From assembly GCA_028719245.1 (NCBI GenBank), contig JAQUKG010000001.1, forward strand, positions 1 through 64,000: DNA of 64,000 bases, in the 5' to 3' direction. This document shows positions 3 through 17,461 of this stretch, piece by piece. Position numbers and translations under genes: made by a program. Every line of letters starts with the position of its first letter. The first letter of the stretch is position 1. This stretch comes from Candidatus Altimarinota bacterium. Its GTDB lineage: Bacteria > Patescibacteriota > Gracilibacteria > BD1-5 > UBA6164. Under the pieces are notes generated by a model, which made no database searches, was not told the origin of the DNA, and saw nothing but the letters and a program-made list of their open reading frames with translations.

Positions 3-965
3 CTAAATGAAACTAAAAAATCATATTTAAATTTTTTATCAGAAAAAGAAAAAGTTATAAATATTTTAAAAAATTCGTATAAAATAAAATTAAGAGGTGA
101 GAAAATATCAAAAGTTTTACCATCATATCAGCAATGAATTTTAGTTGATTGAAGTATGACAGATTTAGAATTTGTAAATTATATAGAAAATCTTTTAAAA
201 AGTTTTAAATTAAACTCTCATTCTTCAGTTTGAATATCTGAATTAGTTTTAGTTGAAGATAAAAATAAGAATAATAGAGATACTATTTCATCCCAAATAT
301 TTTATATTCCTTTAAAATTAGAATTAGAGTGAACAAAATCAAACATTGTTGATTTTTTATATTTTTTACAAAAAGTTTGAAGAATTGAATCAGTTCAAGA
401 TGATAATATAACTTTTTATTCCGACAATGTATTAAATAATAATTTATTATGAAATCAAACTAATATTTATGAAAATAAAATAGTTGATATAGAGTCTATA
501 GAGTTTTATGATTATATAGATACTTCTAGTAATCCTGCAACTCAAAAAGATGCTTTATCACTTATGTCATACATTAAAAATTGAGTAGAAAAAGATGAAA
601 CATATAAAATAAATATATCTCTAAGATTTTATGTTAAATGATTACCAACTTATAAAATAGAATCTTATATTGCAGAAACAATTTCATTATACAATAAGAA
701 ATTAAAACTAATAACTTCAAATTTAAAAAATTTAGAGTCAAAAAAATCATCTAATACATCTAATGAAGTACTAACAATTATTTCATCTTTAAATTCTATA
801 AATACATATCTAAATGATTTAGAACCAACTATAAAAATATTACAAAATTGATTAAAAGGTAAAAATAATTATGATGATTTGTATTCTAAGGCTTTAAAAG
901 TTAAGTATGATATAGATAATATTTCTACTGTATTAGACAGCAATATTAAAAAAATTAAAAATTAA
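3..965 (+). CDS. PilO-like pilus alignment protein, C-terminal part
   Basis: The reading frame is open from the left edge, so the N-terminus lies outside the window; about 320 residues are visible. I see two alpha/beta-like segments (for example VDFLYFLQKVGRIESVQ at about residues 117-133 of the fragment) followed by a helical, coiled-coil-prone C-terminus. The pattern of a beta strand, then a 'fL..l....ri' helix, recalls PilO/GspM proteins, which line up the inner-membrane complex of type IV pili. The next gene, 10 bases downstream, is a PilB-like ATPase, which fits. No catalytic motif is visible. The assignment rests on shape and neighbourhood and is tentative. Confidence 0.45.
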
Positions 966-975
966 TATTAAAAGT

Positions 976-2244
976 ATGAATTATAAAGAAATTATTGAAA
1001 ATTTAAAAAATCTAATTTACTCTTGAGAAAATGTTCAACAAATATGTGATTATATAATTCTATGAGCCGTTTTATCAGGTGCATCAGATATTCATATTGA
1101 ACCTTTAGCTTCATTTGTTAGACTTAGATATAGAATAGATTGAGAATTAAAAGAAATATTAGAATATCAATCTTTTTTACATCAATGAATTGTTGCTAGA
1201 TTTAAAATACTTTCTGATCTTAAAATAGACGAATCTAGAGTTCCACAAGATTGAAGAATTAGTAAAACTATTGAAGAAAAACCTCTTGATTTAAGAGTAT
1301 CAACTCTTCCAACAGTTCAATGAGAAAAGATTGTTATGAGAATAGTTGATAAATCAAAAAAAGTTCCAAAGTTAGAAGAATTATGAATAGAGGGAAAAAA
1401 TTTAAAATTAGTAAAGAAATCAATATCTCTACCGAACTGAATTATTTTAACATCTTGACCAACTTGATCAGGTAAATCTACTACATTATATGCAGCATTA
1501 AGTGTTTTAAATAAGGAAAATGTTAATATAATGACTTTAGAAGATCCTGTTGAAAATCAAGTTGATTGAATTAATCAAAGTCAAGTTAAACCAAATATTT
1601 GATATACATTTGCTAATTGACTTAGGACAGCTCTTAGACAAGATCCAGATATAATAATGGTTTGAGAAATAAGAGATCATGAAACTATTGAAATTGCTAT
1701 TGAAGCTTCTCTTACTTGACATCTTGTTTTGTCTACAATACATACTAATTCTGCCTCAGAAACTTTAACAAGAGTTCTTCAAATGTGAATCCAACCTTTT
1801 TTAATACCAGCATCTTTTAATTCTGTAATAGCACAAAGACTTATTAGAAGACTTTGTCCACATTGCAAAAAACAAATTTGATTAAATGAGTTAGATAAAG
1901 AAACTTTAAAGGATATTCAAAATGCAATAAATCTAACTGAAAAAGAAGAACTTTTATCAAGAGTTTGAGCAGAGATATTAAAATCCCCAAAATTTTATAA
2001 GCCTATTTGATGTGAACAATGTGATAATACTTGATATAAATGAAGAGTATGATTATATGAAGTATTAGAAATAACTTCATGAGTTAAAGAAATGATTCTA
2101 TCTTGAGATAGTGCATTTAATATAAATAAACAAGCTATAAAAGATTGAATGATTTCTTTAGAACAAGATTGAATTATTAAAGCTCTAAATGGATTAACTT
2201 CACTTGAAGAAGTTTATAGTGTTGCAAAAACTCAAAATGCATAA
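976..2244 (+). CDS. pilB: Type IV pilus / type II secretion assembly ATPase
   Basis: This 422-residue cytoplasmic hexameric ATPase would power pilus extension or secretion. The Walker A motif GPTGSGKST lies at residues 161-169, with its first two P-loop glycines written TGA. The Asp/His-box region includes LEDPVE, and the Walker B-type stretch DPDIIMVGEIRD starts near residue 223. Two CxxC pairs (CPHC near 294 and CEQC near 346) form the zinc site typical of PilB/GspE. It lacks the long N-terminal N1 domain of classical PilB and is closer in length to short GspE or PilT forms, but the zinc site favours an assembly ATPase. It sits between a PilO-like and a PilC-like gene in one transcription unit. 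Confidence 0.93.
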
Positions 2245-2270
2245 TATTTATAACTTATAATTTTTAAATT

Positions 2271-3437
2271 ATGTCAGATTTATATATTCTAGATAGTGAA
2301 AAAAAAGAAAATATATCAAATAATAATGATTATAATGAAAATAATATAGGTTTATCAATAATTGATAAATTTAATATATTTATATTATCAAAACAAGCTT
2401 TAAAAATAAAACAAAAAGTTGTATTTTTTAGGTTATTGTCAACAATGATTAATGCATGAATTACATTAACAAAATGAATTTCAATACTAGAAAAACAAGA
2501 AAAGGAATGAACTGTATTAAAAAATATTTTAATACACTTTTTGAAATATTTAAAACAATGAAAATGATTTTCTGAGTGTATGAGTATGTTTAATGCATCT
2601 TTTTCTCCTGCAGAAATTGGTATAATTGAATCTTGAGAAAAAACTTGAAAATTAAATACAACATTAAGAGATTTGGCTAATCAAATTGAAAAGATAGCAT
2701 CCATAAATTGAAAATTAAAATCAGCACTTATGTATCCAGCAATGATAATAGTAGTAGTTATTTGAGTTGTAGTTGTTATGATGACAATGGTTGTTCCAAA
2801 ATTACTTGAAATATTCTCATGATCTCAAAACTTACCAGCAACTACTAGATTATTAATTACAATCTCAGATTTCTTCGTTGTATATTGGTGGTTAATAATT
2901 ACATTTATATTATGATTTATAATTTTTGTTTTATTTTGGAAGAAAACTCCTAAATGAAAATATCATTTTGATAGAATTATATTAAAACTTCCAATTTTTT
3001 GAATGATAACTCAAAAAATTATTTTATCAAAATTTTCCAGAATACTTTCTTGAATGTTAAAATCATGAGTTTCAATAGTTGAATCTCTTAGAATAGTTTC
3101 TGATGCAGTATGAAATGAAGTTTATAGACAAAGGATACTTTTTTTAAGAGATGATGTAAAAAAATGATTAAGAATATATGAATCTTTAGAAGATGATCCT
3201 TTATTTCCAGAAATGATGGTTTCTATGATTCAAATATGAGAGCAAACTGCTAAAATTGATGAAATTATTTTAAAAGTAGCTGATTTTTATGATGAAGAAG
3301 TTGATAATACAATATTAGTAATTAATAAACTTTTAGAACCAATAATTATTGTTTTTATGGCAGTTATTGTTTGATTTATAGCAATAGCTATTATGCAACC
3401 TATTATGAATCTTGCTGACACCATTAGTAATAGTTAG
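2271..3437 (+). CDS. pilC: Type IV pilus / type II secretion inner-membrane platform protein
   Basis: The gene encodes 388 residues with the duplicated GspF/PilC architecture: a cytoplasmic helical domain (about 75-180), a hydrophobic pair near 165-235, a second helical domain (about 250-350) containing PLFPEMMVSMIQ, and a final hydrophobic segment near 355-380. Platform proteins couple rotation of the PilB ATPase to loading of pilin subunits. It starts 26 bases after the ATPase stop and ends at TAG. Its position directly after pilB and the family's usual length of about 400 residues support the call. An N-terminal Asp/Asn/Ser-rich extension of about 25 residues is unusual. Confidence 0.9.
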
Positions 3438-3503: not shown

Positions 3504-6329
3504 ATGAAAAAAATATTTTACATTATTGTATTTTACTTTCTTTGCTTAAATAATGTTTTTGCAAGCCTATTAGATACAAAGAAAAAACTATGATTAACAA
3601 CTAATAATCCAAAAGAAACTGTAGAGGCAACAACATCATCTTGATCTTTTCTTGATTCTCTTTGGAATGCCTTATATATAACATTATGGGGACTTATACT
3701 TTTTGCTTTGGTAATCTTATTAATTAAATTGGTAAGATTACTTTTTGAAGTTTGAATGACAAAGAAACTTGTTTATATGAAAGTTACACTTCCAAAAGCT
3801 GATTCAAAATTAGATAAAGAAAAAGAAACTAAAAAGGATTTTAAAGAAAAAACTTGAATGATGAGTATGTATTATAAAGCTATTCATAAACTAAGTGATG
3901 CCTGACTAAAAGATACTATGACAGATGCTGTTTTTGATCACTCAAAAGTATCATTAGAATTAGCTTATGAACATTGAGAATTAAGTTTTTATATAGTTAC
4001 TTACGAATGATATGTAAATGTTGTTACTCAACATATTACATCAATATATAACGATGCTGAAGTTAGAATAATAGATAAAGAAAAAGAATATATAAAAATA
4101 AAGCCCGAATGATATACACTTAGAGCATCATCTCTTTGAAAAGATAAAGATGATGTTTTCCCAATTAGATGTTTTAAATATCTTGAAGATGACCCATTAA
4201 ATAATTTTACAAATGTATTTTCATCTCTTGATAAAGAAGATAAAGCTGTTTATCAAATTATAATTAAACCTATTTGATCAAGGTGGAATAAAAAAGCAAA
4301 AAAAGCATCTTGATTGGTAGCTAAATGACAATATAAAAAGAAAAATAACATTCCTTTTTTGGATTTCTTTTGGAATCCTCTTGTTGCTTTAGTTCAATGA
4401 ACGGATAGTATGGTTAAAGATGAAACTGCTCCTTGAGCTTCATCTTGAGATAGTTACAAAATATTCAATCAGGCTGAAACAGAAAGCCAAAAAATTATGT
4501 GAGAGGCAGCATGACAACCGGCTTTTAGAACTTCAATTAGAATACTTGTTGCTTCAAAAATACCAAAAAAAGCGGAAGAATGAGCACATGCAGTAATAGC
4601 AGCTTCTTCAATATTTACTGATGAGTATAATAATGCTTTAGATAATCCTCAATTTTATGAAGATTTTTTATATTTTATATTTACCCCTATAAGATATTTT
4701 GCCTTTCAACATAAATTAATTTGATTTTTTCAAAATGTTTCTATATTTTCAACAGATGAATTATCAACTTTGTTTCATTTTCCAGATATAAATTATAATA
4801 AATCACCTATTATAAATTGGCTAGAATATAAAAAATTAGCTCCCCCACATAATTTAAAATTTCCTCATGATCCTTGTATCTTAGAAGAAAAGATTAAAAT
4901 TTGAACTAAAGAAATAATTGATGAAATAACTTGAGAAAAGAAACAAGAAGATATTTTTGAAATAAAACAAGTTCATAGACAACTTTGATGATTTCCAGTT
5001 TTTAAGGATTGAGTTTTAATGTGATTTAATGAATATAGAAATAAAAGAATTCCTATTTATTTTGATAAGAAAGATAGAGGTAGACATCATTATATTATAT
5101 GAAAATCTTGAGGGTGAAAATCAGTTTTTATTTGATATTTAGCTCGTCAAGATATGCGGAATTGAGATGGACTTTGTGTAATTGACCCACATTGAGACTT
5201 AGTTGAAGATATTTTAGCATTTACTCCGAAAGAAAGAGCTCGTGATACAGTTGTTTTTGACCCAGCAGATGATGAATATCCAATGTGATTAAATATGCTT
5301 GAAGTAATAAGCGAAGATAAAGATGCCAGAAAAAGAGAAATGGACAGAGCTGCTATGGATGCTACAGAAATATTTATAAAAATATTTTGAGATGAGATAT
5401 TTGGTCCTCGTATACAACATTATTTTAGAAATGGTTGTTTAACATTGATGGAGGATTTAGAAGATTGATGAACTCTAATAGATGTTCCTAGACTTTTTGT
5501 TGATGATGCTTTTATGAAATATAAAACTTCAAAAATTACAAATCCTGTTGTAAAATCTTTCTGGGAACATGAATATGCAAACACTTGAGATAGAGAAAAA
5601 CAAGAAATGATTCCTTATTTCTCTTCAAAATTTGGGCCATTTATTACAAATACAACTATAAGAAATATTATTGGTCAACCAAAATCAGCCTTTAATATAA
5701 GAGAAATAATGGATACTAGAAAAGCACTTTTAGTAAATCTTTCAAAATGAAAAATAGGAGCTTTAAATGCACAGTTGCTTTGACTTATATTTGTTTCAAA
5801 AGTAAATATGGCAGCAATGAGTAGAGCTGATATGCCGGAAAATGAAAGAAAAGATTTTTTCATGTATGTTGATGAATTTCAAAACTTTGCTACCGAAACT
5901 TTTTGAGAAATATTATCAGAAGCTAGAAAGTATCGTTTAGCCTTGATAATGGCTCATCAATTTATAGCACAAATTGGATGAAATTGATCTAAAAAATGAG
6001 ATAAGCCATCTATTAAAGATGCTGTATTTTGAAATGCTTGAACAATTATGTCATTTAAAGTTTGAGCCGAAGATGCTGAATATTTAGAAAAAGAATATGC
6101 ACCTTTATTGTCTCAACAAGATATAATTTGAATTGCAAATTTTACAACTTATGTTAAATTGAATATAAATAATGCTACAACTCGTCCTTTTGATATGAAA
6201 ACTCTTTGGGATAATAATTATAAAAATATTGAGGCAGCAAAAATTATTAAAGAATATTCTAGAAAAAAATATTGAAGAAAGAAAAAATATGTAGATATGG
6301 AAATTGAAGCTAGACTTTGAATAACTTAA
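3504..6329 (+). CDS. VirD4/TraG-like membrane-anchored type IV secretion ATPase
   Basis: The product is 941 residues. An N-terminal hydrophobic signal or anchor (1-21) and a second membrane segment (about 57-78) precede a large cytoplasmic part. The Walker A motif GKSGGGKS is at 533-540, followed by CVIDPHGDLVEDIL near 558-571, the signature of T4SS coupling-protein or conjugation ATPases. A second acidic motif, YVDEFQNFAT, is near 786. VirD4/TraG proteins recognise DNA or protein substrates and push them into a type IV secretion channel. The gene follows pilC and precedes three VirB2-like proteins, so it may couple a DNA- or protein-transfer channel to the pilus machine. Codon 552 is one of only three CGG/CGA codons in the window. 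Confidence 0.85.
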
Positions 6330-6345
6330 AAATTAATTATTTTAT

Positions 6346-7287
6346 ATGAAAAAACTAATTATAAAAATATTATTTTCAATAACTTTATTATTTATACCTT
6401 TATTTACATTTGCGACAAACATAGATAATATAAAAATTGTAACTGAAGATACTTGAAATAATAAAAATAATACTTATTTAGATCAATTGTCATCAAAATG
6501 AAATTTTTTTTCTGTTTCAACTACTTGAGAAAAATGAGCTAAATACCTCTTATTAAATATTGCAAGAGATATGAGAGTTATGGTTTTTGCTGTAATTTTT
6601 TTGATGATTATAGTAATGGTTTTAAAATTATTATTTTCTGAAAGCACCGATGAAGAACAACAAAAGAAATTAAGAAAATGAATACTTTGGGCAAGTATAT
6701 GAATAATGATTATGCAAATTTCTTTTGTATTTTACAATGTTATGTTTGATAAAGATGTAAATGCTGCTTTAGCTAAAAACACATGAAAAAAACTTATAGA
6801 ACCTTTTGCTGAATTACTTATGCTATTGGCATCATTTGCATTTATTGTAATGGCTATATATGCATTTTATAGAATAATTACAGCTTGATGAGAAGAAGAT
6901 AAAATTAAAAAATGAAAAACAGCTATTTACCATGCTATTATTTGATTTATAATCATAAAATTTTCTAATTTAATTGTAACAAATACTTTTAATCCTGATT
7001 GTAATTGATGAAGTTTAATATCTTATTGGGGAACAAATATTTGTGAAAATGTTAAAGATAATTCAAAAATAGTAATTACATTAATAAATTGGTTTAATAC
7101 ATTTGTTTGAATAATTGTAGTTTTGATGATAATTTATGCTTGATTTTTAGTAATTACTTGATGATGAGATGATGAAAAAACAAAAAAAGCAAAAAAAATT
7201 ATTTTCAATTCAGCAATTTGATTATTAATATTATTTGCTAGTTATTTAATTTTAACATTTTTTATAATTCCAGAAAGTAAAATTTAA
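6346..7287 (+). CDS. VirB2/TrbC-like polytopic membrane protein with three modules
   Basis: This 313-residue protein has a clear signal peptide (1-23, ending FTFA). It then shows three hydrophobic pairs, each with a short charged loop between them: near residue 98 (SESTDEEQQKKLRKG), near 180 (AGGEEDKIKKGK) and near 271 (TGGGDDEKTKKAKK). Each loop is followed by a hydrophobic helix such as IIFNSAIGLLILFASYLI. One such two-helix unit resembles a VirB2/TrbC pilin subunit; here three are fused. It is 16 bases after the VirD4-like ATPase and 10 before a similar protein. It may be a structural channel or pilus-base component. This is inference from topology; no catalytic residues are visible. Confidence 0.6.
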
Positions 7288-7297
7288 TATATTGCTT

Positions 7298-8194
7298 ATG
7301 AAAAAAAATCTTTTAAAAATATTTCTAATATTTTCTTTGTTTACTATAAATATTTGATTAGCTTGAAATATAAATTTTTCGGATGCATCACCTGCAACCT
7401 CAAAAATTAAAACGGTTTCTATATCTGAAAAAAGTTGAACTATTGAAACTCAAATTTCAAACACTACTTATAATGTTTTTAAAACAATAAAAATAGTTAT
7501 ATGATGACTTTTAGTTGTTTATATGGTTTATGCTTGAGCTTCAATGGCTCTTATGTGAGATGATGAAAAACAAGTTTCAACTGCTAAAAGAAGTATTTGG
7601 CATGCAATTGTCGCACTTTTATTTATAAATATACCTTGAACTTTATATCTGGCTTTCTCAGACAAAAAAACATCTGATGATGTAACCTCAAGTCTCTGAG
7701 ATATTACAACTATTTATAATAGAAATATATTAATGAATAGTGATAATTTTAAAACAACTTTTTGATCTTTAATTACTTTTCTAGAAATAGCAATAGTTAT
7801 ACTAGCTGTATTTATGTTTATTTTACAATGAATAAGACTTATGTCATCATTAGATGAAAAGAGAGTTTGAGAAGCTAGAAATAAAATATTATGGTCTCTT
7901 GCATGACTTATATTTATATGAATAATGGAAGTTTGGAGAAATATGGTTTTTATTTGAGATTTCAAATGAACTGGACAAGACATGTTTTCAAAATTAGTAA
8001 ATTTAGCATTATTCTTTGCTGGACCAATTGCTATATTTTTCTTAAGTATGGCTTGATATTATTATATCACATCTGGTTGAGAAGATGATAAAATCAAAAA
8101 AGCAAAAAGTATAGTTTTTAATACACTACTCGCAACTTTACTTCTTTTATGAATGTATACTTTCCTACTTGATCTAAAAACTTTAACTTTCTAA
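7298..8194 (+). CDS. VirB2/TrbC-like polytopic membrane protein with three modules
   Basis: The 298-residue product has a signal peptide (about 1-21, ending GLAG) and three copies of the two-helix module seen in the preceding gene. Charged loops occur near residue 83 (MGDDEKQVSTAKR), 183 (SSLDEKRVGEARN) and 259 (SGGEDDKIKKAK). The third copy is the closest match to the canonical form. The first two are diverged, which suggests old duplications. The same strand, 10-base spacing and shared module indicate a common complex with the neighbouring proteins. VirB2-type pilins polymerise or line a channel; whether the fused forms do so is unknown. Confidence 0.58.
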
Positions 8195-8203
8195 TTTAAT
8201 TTT

Positions 8204-8812
8204 ATGAAAAAATTATTAATTATAATATCTTTATTATTTTTTCAATTATCTTTTGCCGATAATTGAGCAACAAATACAGCCACTCTTTGATGAAACTCTT
8301 GATGAAATCCAAATCCAACAAATTCAGTGATTACTTCTTGAGTTTCAAATGCAACAAATACAGCCACTCTTTGAAATTGAACCTCAAATACAGCAAATAC
8401 AGCCACTCTTTGATGAACTTCATCAAATACCTCAAATGCAAGTTCTTCAAGCACCACTTCTTGATGAAGCTCAGATAATATAACAGTAAAGGTTACTGAA
8501 AAAATACCTTGAGCTGAATGTTGAGAATGTTCAAAAAAATGAAACGATGGATGATGTTTGGAATACACCTGTAAAGTCCAACCTTGATTTACTTCTATTA
8601 CTTTAATGATTTGACAAATTATTAAATGGTTTACAGCAATTGCAGCTTTAGCTTGAGTTTGATTTATAGTTTTAAATTGAATGTTTCTTTCAATTTGATG
8701 AGAATGAAAAGATGAAATTAAAAAGAAAATTGTAAAAACTATAGCATGAATTATCTTATTACTTCTTAGTTGATTAATATTGAATATAATTGCTCCTTGG
8801 GTTTATAAATAA
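8204..8812 (+). CDS. Secreted Ser/Thr/Gly/Asn-rich protein with C-terminal VirB2-like module
   Basis: The 202-residue protein has a signal peptide (1-18, ending SFA), then a low-complexity region (about 19-95) rich in Asn, Thr, Ser and Gly. This holds three near-identical copies of NTATLG, encoded by a 21-24 base repeat at 8267, 8351 and 8392. A cysteine cluster (CGEC, then two more Cys, about 107-125) follows. Two hydrophobic helices flank the charged loop GGEGKDEIKKKIV near residue 163, the single VirB2-like module. It could be the exposed pilin-like subunit of the set, with the upstream fused proteins as relatives. It ends the unit; the 3' end is 4 bases from the convergent mutL stop. Confidence 0.55.
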
Positions 8813-16069: not shown

Positions 16070-17461
16070 ATGAGAAGACATGAAGCAATAATATTAAGTG
16101 AGATAATAGAAAAACTAAACTTAGAAAAATTACTAAAGCAGTATAATAAAAATCTAGTATGAAATGGAAGACCAGCATATAATCCAAAAATGCTTTTAAA
16201 AATATTATTTTACTGATATATGAATCAAACTTTTAGTAGTAGAAAATTAGCATCAAAGGTAAAATCAGATTTATGATTTATGTATTTAACATGAAATAAT
16301 AAACCAGACTTTAGAACCATAAACAGATTTAGAAAAGAAAAATGAAATATATTAGAAGATATATTTGTACAAATAGTTATGAAAGCAAAAAAACTATGAC
16401 TCATTCAATTTTGAACAGTAAGCTTAGACTGAACAAAAATATATGCAAATGCATCAAAAAATAAAAATTATGAGATAGCTTGATTAGATAAAAAAATTAA
16501 GTCATTTTTTGATGAAGCAGATGAAATAGATAAACTAGAAGATAAAGAATTTTGAGAAGAAAACGAAAATCATATTCCAGAAGAACTAAAAACCAAAGAA
16601 TGAAGAGATAAAAAGAGAAAAGAAATTGAAGAAAAAAGACAAAAAGCAGAAGAAAGAAAAGAAATCATAAAAAATGAAATAAATGAAAAACAAAAGGCTT
16701 GAATAAAACAAGAAAGAATAAATCTCACAGATAAAGATTCAAGATTAGTACTAATGAAGAGAAAAGATTGGTGAAATTGATATAATCCACAAATACTAAC
16801 AGAAAATCAAATTATTTTAACAACAACAGTTCCAAATTCAGCAGATGATAATAATGAATTAATACCATTATTAGAAAAGTTAAAAAATAAATTTACTATT
16901 TTTCCAAAAAATATATTAGCAGATAAATGATATTGAAATGAGGAGAATTATAAATATCTAGAAAAAGGTAATATATTATCATATATTCCACATCAAGAAA
17001 ATAGTGGAAAAAATCTAGATGAATATATATATGAAAAAAGTAATGATACTTATGAAGATAAAGACTGAAATATATTTAAGTTTAAACAATTTATGGGAAG
17101 ATTAGATTGAACTTGAAAAAAATGAAGACCAAGAAAAGAAAATATTAAAACATTAAAAGAAGAAGATTACAAAGCAAAACTATACATTACAAGACTAGAA
17201 AGCTGATGAAATAAATTTTTATATGTAGCAAAGAATTTAAAAGAGATTTACAGGAGAAATGATGAGAGATTATATAGTGAAGAATGAAAAAAAATATATA
17301 AGAAAAGATGAACTTGTGTAGAACCTGTTTTTGGTAATGTTAAATTTAACCTTTGATTTGAAAGGTTTTTATTAAGGTGATTTGAATGAGTTCAAATTGA
17401 GTGGAATTTGATAAGTTTAGCTCATAATCTAAAGAAAATCATCAAATTCAAAACTTCTTAG
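16070..17461 (+). CDS. IS1182-like DDE transposase, N-terminus frameshifted
   Basis: The main frame gives 463 residues from ATG 16070 (MRRHEAIILSEIIEK). It has a DUF772-like N-terminal domain, then DDE residues in VSLDGTKIYANA, ILADKGYGNEENY and CVEPVFGNVK. A highly charged Lys/Glu insertion (about residues 140-215) lies between the first two. The usual family start, FKEYNQEQAFLLPPSFREYLGED, is present upstream at 16008-16079 but in another frame; that frame ends at TAA 16089-16091. One missing base near 16079, or a -1 frameshift, would join GED to HEAIIL. The protein may therefore be made from the internal ATG, by frameshifting, or be inactive. Confidence 0.82.

What the first reader, a model, noticed from the sequence alone, without database searches (positions are those of the whole stretch)
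6346..8812. Seven VirB2/TrbC-like two-helix modules spread over three adjacent genes
The module is a hydrophobic helix, a loop of the form GG(D/E)(D/E)DKIKKAK, and a second helix of the type xIFNxAIGLLIL. It occurs three times in the 313-aa protein, three times in the 298-aa protein and once in the 202-aa protein. Ordinary VirB2/TrbC pilins are single small subunits. Fused tandem modules that keep a signal peptide would build a fixed-stoichiometry ring or channel base. I know of no well-described system of this form.
Basis: partly seen in the sequence, partly recalled or inferred. Interest (0 to 1): 0.7.

Follow-up and report, generated by a model that had tools for sequence, protein, structure and literature searches.

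The report
Fused tandem T4SS pilin modules, Gracilibacteria
An ultrasmall, probably host-dependent bacterium, and nearly its whole class, encodes its secretion-machine 'pilin' units fused three in a row in two membrane proteins plus a single unit in a third, here next to a motor protein of the machine, which suggests a built-in base or channel of fixed composition rather than an ordinary pilus.

Summary
The seven two-helix modules are real. Under genetic code 25 the three genes carry 3, 3 and 1 copies of the Pfam T4SS_pilin (PF18895) hairpin, each behind a signal-like N-terminus. The order VirD4-like ATPase, 3-module, 3-module, 1-module is complete in 32 of 39 loci fetched from the window's family. 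The 3+3+1 set recurs across the class, its genes reshuffled beside VirB4 or VirD4-type ATPases; in standard-code relatives a 3+3 pair is often followed by a giant protein with one module. Elsewhere in Patescibacteria the modules are mostly separate genes in arrays (published), some with 2- or 3-module fusions. I found no report of the fused 3+3 form in the library searched. No class member sampled matches VirB6/TrbL, and the first module of the 313-aa protein aligns weakly with the N-terminal hairpin of patescibacterial VirB6. Best reading: a cis-linked hetero-oligomeric pilin/VirB6-like membrane core of a chromosomal T4SS. Structure, stoichiometry, ATPase contact and substrate are untested. 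New variant of a known kind.

The parts
3504..6329 (+). P4: VirD4/HerA-like AAA+ ATPase, 941 aa, N-terminal hydrophobic region (partner gene)
   Evidence: DUF87 2.7e-7, TrwB_AAD_bind 7.3e-6, TraG-D_C 0.0033; match in 48/48 family genomes
6346..7287 (+). P1: 313-aa protein with signal-like N-terminus and three T4SS_pilin modules
6346..6414 (+). P1 Sec-like signal sequence (MKKLIIKILFSITLLFIPLFTFA)
   Evidence: read from the sequence; inference
6547..6756 (+). P1 module a (aa 68-137); the module that weakly resembles the CPR VirB6 N-terminal hairpin
6787..6990 (+). P1 module b (aa 148-215), loop AGGEEDKIKKGK
6979..7065 (+). P1 b-c linker (aa 212-240) with a Cys pair (C219, C233), predicted extracytoplasmic
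   Evidence: two or more Cys in this linker in 28/32 orthologues
7054..7272 (+). P1 module c (aa 237-309), loop GGGDDEKTKKAK
7298..8194 (+). P2: 298-aa protein with signal-like N-terminus and three T4SS_pilin modules
7451..7657 (+). P2 module a (about aa 52-120)
7745..7951 (+). P2 module b (about aa 150-218)
7973..8185 (+). P2 module c (about aa 226-296), loop SGGEDDKIKKAK
8204..8812 (+). P3: 202-aa single-module pilin with signal-like N-terminus, low-complexity linker and Cys motif before the module
8588..8809 (+). P3 pilin module (aa 129-202), conserved C-terminal IAPW(V/I)YK

Best explanation
P1, P2 and P3 are membrane subunits of a chromosomal T4SS-type machine, worked by the adjacent VirD4-like ATPase and by an unlinked VirB4. 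Each VirB2-type hairpin has both ends outside and its charged loop in the cytoplasm. In other Patescibacteria such modules are mostly separate neighbouring genes; in this class they are covalently joined as 3+3, with one extra single-module subunit, so that non-identical modules are delivered in fixed order and number. The fused pair most likely forms the membrane platform or channel that stands where VirB6 (and perhaps the first pilin layers) stand elsewhere, touching the ATPases through its cytoplasmic loops. P3, which keeps the single-pilin form, would be a cap, a minor subunit or a polymerising pilin; in standard-code class members the single-module gene after the pair carries a large extension, PKD repeats in the one scanned. 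Shown: module homology, copy number, conservation, gene linkage, loop/linker charge and cysteine pattern. Inferred: topology, oligomer, ATPase contact, VirB6-like role, cargo.
For: Modules match T4SS_pilin. ATPase-P1-P2-P3 is complete in 32 of 39 family loci, 5 more are cut by contig ends, 2 are not linked. In another TGA=Gly family of the class (f13) P1-like lies downstream of VirB4 (P-loop_TraG, AAA_10) in 6 of 8 loci, and in one locus P3-like and P2-like lie downstream of the VirD4-like ATPase (L186); in order relatives P1 sits beside the ATPase and P2-P3 sit elsewhere. Standard-code class members: 22 of 25 fetched loci have adjacent 3+3 pairs, two 4+4, one 2+3. Modules cluster by position in the protein, not by genome: 8 label changes against 83 in shuffles. 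K+R 16-22% in all seven intra-module loops against 3-9% in tails and linkers; Cys pairs only in predicted outside segments. AF2 gives three long helical hairpins in each. Inspected arrays elsewhere hold several modules and include 2- and 3-module fusions. None of the 55 (of 241) phylum genomes that match TrbL/VirB6 belongs to this class, and G000 has no match; Quinonero-Coronel et al. report VirB6 absent in Gracilibacteria (PMC12102498). P1 module a against the CPR VirB6 N-terminal hairpin: hhalign 80%, full-hairpin register, 0.2% when reversed.
Against: The VirB6 link is weak: only P1a, strongest with the broad alignment; f13 P1a alone gives 0.2%; no P1/P2 match to solved VirB6, VirB2 or CedA1 chains; Foldseek found nothing significant. 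AF2 confidence is low (pTM 0.39), so module packing is unknown. The genome also has at least six separate single-module pilins, so fusion is not its only pilin supply. VirB4 is on another contig in the window's own genome.
Confidence: 0.55

Rival explanations
1. Fused pilin precursors: P1 and P2 are polyproteins cut into single pilins that polymerise, i.e. just another way to encode the known Patescibacteria pilin array.
For: Arrays of similar modules exist elsewhere (arrays of 2-11 genes in PMC12102498); the P1 b-c and P2 a-b linkers are long and variable.
Against: By reading, no second signal sequence lies between modules; the P1 b-c linker keeps a Cys pair in 28/32; the P1 a-b and P2 b-c linkers are short (about 15-18 aa); modules are position-specific.
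Confidence: 0.15
2. A DNA-uptake apparatus like archaeal Ced/Ted: VirD4/HerA-like ATPase plus a polytopic pilin-derived membrane channel used to import nucleic acid from the host.
For: P4 hits CedD weakly (4.7e-4); CedA is a 6-7 TM VirB6 relative whose N-terminal region is homologous to the CedA1 pilin (PMC9905601), the same kind of relation as P1 to pilins.
Against: The N-terminal domain of P4 shows no similarity to the VirB4 N-terminal domain (1.2%); the CedD score is far below its cut-off; the direction of transport cannot be read from sequence.
Confidence: 0.2
3. Diversified pilins for surface variation (host adaptation or antigenic variation), as proposed for VirB2 arrays.
For: Proposed in PMC12102498 by analogy with Bartonella and Anaplasma.
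Against: Each module position is conserved over the family and clusters by position; strong linkage to ATPase genes.
Confidence: 0.07

Closest known systems
Patescibacteria VirB2-like pilin arrays (PF18895; PMC12102498; six-pilin cluster of Ca. Southlakia epibionticum, PMC12857230)
   Same: Same Pfam family and hairpin, several divergent copies side by side, chromosomal T4SS context.
   Different: Published arrays are described as separate genes; here six modules are fused 3+3 in two proteins with a seventh in P3, beside a VirD4-like ATPase rather than VirB4, and the pattern is class-wide.
VirB2/TrbC pilins (PF04956)
   Same: Signal peptide, two hydrophobic helices with a charged cytoplasmic loop.
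   Different: One module per protein there; P1/P2 have three and are not recognised by PF04956 at E<=1.
VirB6/TrbL and archaeal CedA/TedA
   Same: About 300 aa with six TM segments, as for VirB6 of MPF-FATA systems and CedA; [quoted passage not shown] P1 module a weakly matches the CPR VirB6 N-terminal hairpin.
   Different: No PF04610 match; the whole length is built of pilin repeats rather than having one pilin-like region.
Mbov_0395 family pilin-like conjugal transfer protein (NF045849, mycoplasma ICE)
   Same: P1 passes the curated cut-off.
   Different: That family is a single 80-position module.

Membership tests
T4SS_pilin (PF18895) | Score above the curated cut-off (26.6 bits) | tested here: met
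   P1 77.1 and P2 61.1 bits; P3 at 23.0 is below
T4SS_pilin (PF18895) | Single small two-helix subunit | tested here: not met
   P1 and P2 hold three modules each; P3 holds one
VirB2/TrbC (PF04956) | Match to the TrbC model | tested here: not met
   No hit at E<=1 for P1, P2, P3; the solo pilin on contig C2 hits weakly at 0.014
VirB2-type conjugative pilin | Assembles into an extracellular filament | not testable with these tools
VirB6/TrbL (PF04610) | Match to the TrbL model | tested here: not met
   No PF04610 hit in G000, none for P1/P2
VirB6/TrbL (PF04610) | Remote profile similarity to the VirB6 N-terminal hairpin | tested here: inconclusive
   P1a 80% with the broad P1 alignment, 60% with the family only, 0.2% reversed, f13 alone 0.2%
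VirD4/T4CP (partner ATPase P4) | VirD4/TrwB-type motor domain | tested here: met
   TrwB_AAD_bind 25.5 bits over cut-off 20.5, DUF87 31.4 over 23.2
T4SS in this genome | VirB4, VirB3/PrgI and pilin in the same genome | tested here: met
   VirB4 on C68, PrgI on C2, single pilins on C2, C5, C6, C29; all unlinked to the window operon
Conjugation system | Relaxase gene | not tested
   No relaxase search was run; PMC12102498 reports relaxases as rare in Patescibacteria

The most novel reading that the evidence does not exclude
In Gracilibacteria and sister groups the missing VirB6 has been replaced by (or still is) a tandem fusion of pilin modules, so that P1 and P2 are living intermediates between VirB2-type pilins and VirB6/CedA-type channels, and the pilin arrays of other Patescibacteria are fixed hetero-oligomers rather than variant pilins.
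Probability: 0.25. Interest if true: 0.8.

Novelty: new variant of a known kind. Interest (0 to 1): 0.58.

Why it matters
T4SS genes are essential for life on a host in the one patescibacterium tested genetically (cited in PMC12102498), yet the inner-membrane core of the system in Gracilibacteria is unassigned because VirB6 is not found. Fusion in cis of six divergent pilin modules implies a defined hetero-oligomer, which argues against reading pilin arrays as mere surface variation, and it bears on the question raised for CedA/CedA1 and VirB6/VirB2 (PMC9905601) of which came first, pilin or channel.

Tried and rejected
Generic hydrophobic-repeat artefact: rejected, because PF18895 is specific genome-wide and in control genomes and modules show position-specific conservation. 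Recent tandem duplication or gene conversion in this genome: rejected by the module tree. Link to type IV pili: pilB/pilC lie just upstream in the window, but that adjacency is not kept in family relatives; in sister family f2 a T2SSE-type ATPase precedes P2, so a looser association stays open. Anti-phage defence: only weak ATPase-domain hits for P4, none for P1-P3. Foldseek of the P1 model against PDB: no significant match, uninformative at this confidence. Sequence search against solved structures: nothing for P1/P2. N-terminal domain of P4 as a VirB4-type domain: not supported.

Full report
What is there. The window lies in an alternative-code genome (TGA=Gly). With table 25 the reported coordinates give three closely packed genes, 6346-7287 (P1), 7298-8194 (P2) and 8204-8812 (P3), behind an ATPase gene at 3504-6329 (P4), with gaps of 16, 10 and 9 bases. 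With table 11 these genes fall apart. Each of P1-P3 begins with a Sec-like signal sequence, by reading.

Modules. Pfam T4SS_pilin hits P1 (1.1e-21, three stretches), P2 (1.1e-16, three) and P3 (8.7e-5, one, just under cut-off); NCBIfam NF045849 hits P1 over its cut-off. The same Pfam model finds only ten places in the whole genome and rings in one of fourteen control genomes. A profile from P3 alone, an independent single-module gene, recognises P1 module c and two P2 modules, and profile-profile comparison ties all seven together through intermediates. AlphaFold2 with 22-row alignments shows three long helical hairpins in P1 (59-97/103-133, 140-179/184-214, 236-271/276-307) and in P2 (49-86/90-120, 148-183/187-218, 222-258/263-295), but with low confidence (pLDDT 62 and 68, pTM 0.39).

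Topology. Over 32-36 orthologues, K+R make up 16-22% of all seven intra-module loops and 3-9% of tails and linkers. Two cysteines occur in the P1 b-c linker (28 of 32) and in the P3 N-terminal tail (36 of 36), and hardly anywhere else. Both patterns fit loops inside and ends and linkers outside, as for VirB2 (established knowledge). Topology itself is inferred.

Conservation in the family. All 48 genomes searched have a P4 match and a P1 match. Of 39 loci fetched, 32 have ATPase-P1-P2-P3 complete and in order, five are cut by contig ends and two are not linked. A convergent mutL follows in many. Modules group by position in the protein, not by genome (8 changes against a shuffled mean of 83), so the fusion predates the family and each module is specialised. 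The tree rests on 75 columns and does not resolve the order of the duplications.

Conservation in the class. 186 of 192 class genomes have a P1-profile match at 1e-10; many such matches are single modules. In the same order but another family (f2), P1 stays beside P4 while full-length P2, with P3 where seen, sits at another place. In a more distant TGA=Gly family (f13), P1-like follows VirB4 and a 310-345-aa membrane protein in six of eight loci, and P2-like and P3-like lie together, once behind the P4 orthologue (L186). In standard-code families, one of which is Peregrinibacteria by contig match (G142:C1 and PGYE01000001.1, both 998424 bases), 22 of 25 fetched loci have adjacent 3+3 proteins, two have 4+4 and one 2+3; about half continue into a giant protein with one module near its N-terminus, with PKD repeats in the one scanned. 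These loci were chosen from the best hits, so the fractions are not a census.

Outside the class. P1-profile hits are mostly single-module genes in arrays; the multi-module cases picked for inspection show arrays with 2-module fusions (L220-L225) and one 3-module fusion (L219). So fusion is a graded trait that became regular as 3+3 in this class.

Rest of the machine here. The genome has VirB4 on another contig, PrgI/VirB3 with a TraC-like (TrsD-like) protein and a single pilin, and at least six single-module pilins in all. PF04610 (TrbL/VirB6) has no match in this genome, and none of the 55 of 241 phylum genomes that match belongs to this class. Quinonero-Coronel et al. 2025 report that VirB6 homologues are absent in Gracilibacteria and describe pilin arrays of 2-11 genes; the passages I read do not mention fused multi-module pilins (PMC12102498).

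VirB6 link. The N-terminal hairpin of 15 patescibacterial TrbL-family proteins aligns over its full length with P1 module a (60% with the family alignment, 80% with the order/class alignment; reversed control 0.2%), and weakly at the same place with the generic module (29%). P1a of f13 alone does not match (0.2%). Beltran et al. [quoted passage not shown] A pilin-built VirB6 equivalent is therefore plausible but not established.

Mechanism. I commit to a fixed hetero-oligomeric membrane core (platform or channel) of a chromosomal T4SS-type machine, with P3 as single-pilin partner: about 0.55 for a structural T4SS core role in this fused form, 0.25 for the stronger claim that it replaces VirB6. 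Oligomer, ATPase contact, direction and cargo are inferred, not shown.

Limits. Loci outside the family were not sampled at random; organism names are missing for most genomes; no complex prediction was possible; the paper library lacks most subscription journals, so absence of a report of fused pilins means absence in what I could search.

Noticed in passing
window 156-3437: Type IV pilus-type genes (PilB-type T2SSE ATPase at 976-2244, PilC-type T2SSF at 2271-3437, preceded by a 269-aa ORF perhaps PilO-like) directly upstream on the same strand; adjacency to the ATPase-pilin operon is not kept in family relatives.
   Followed up: partly
window 8261-8470: P3 of this genome has a Thr/Ser/Asn/Gly low-complexity insertion with NTATLGG-like repeats (202 aa against about 130-190 in most relatives).
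   Followed up: no
L127:6410-11356; similar in L117, L119, L124, L126, L128, L132, L133, L136, L137, L143: In standard-code class members the 3+3 pair is followed by a protein of about 1,300-1,670 aa with one pilin module near its N-terminus and, in L127, PKD repeats; a nusG gene lies divergently upstream of the pair.
   Followed up: partly
G554:C8:141900-142106: A pilin module lies in an open frame reported as 26,099 aa; other giants with one module reach 3,300-3,500 aa.
   Followed up: no
L182:2306-3358, L185:5886-6956: In sister family f2 a T2SSE-type (PilT-like) ATPase gene lies directly upstream of P2.
   Followed up: partly
window 16070-17461: 463-aa ORF that reads like an IS transposase.
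   Followed up: no
L078:6546-8497 (G000 contig C29): A separate array of four single-module pilin genes (207, 121, 114 and 198 aa) in the same genome.
   Followed up: partly
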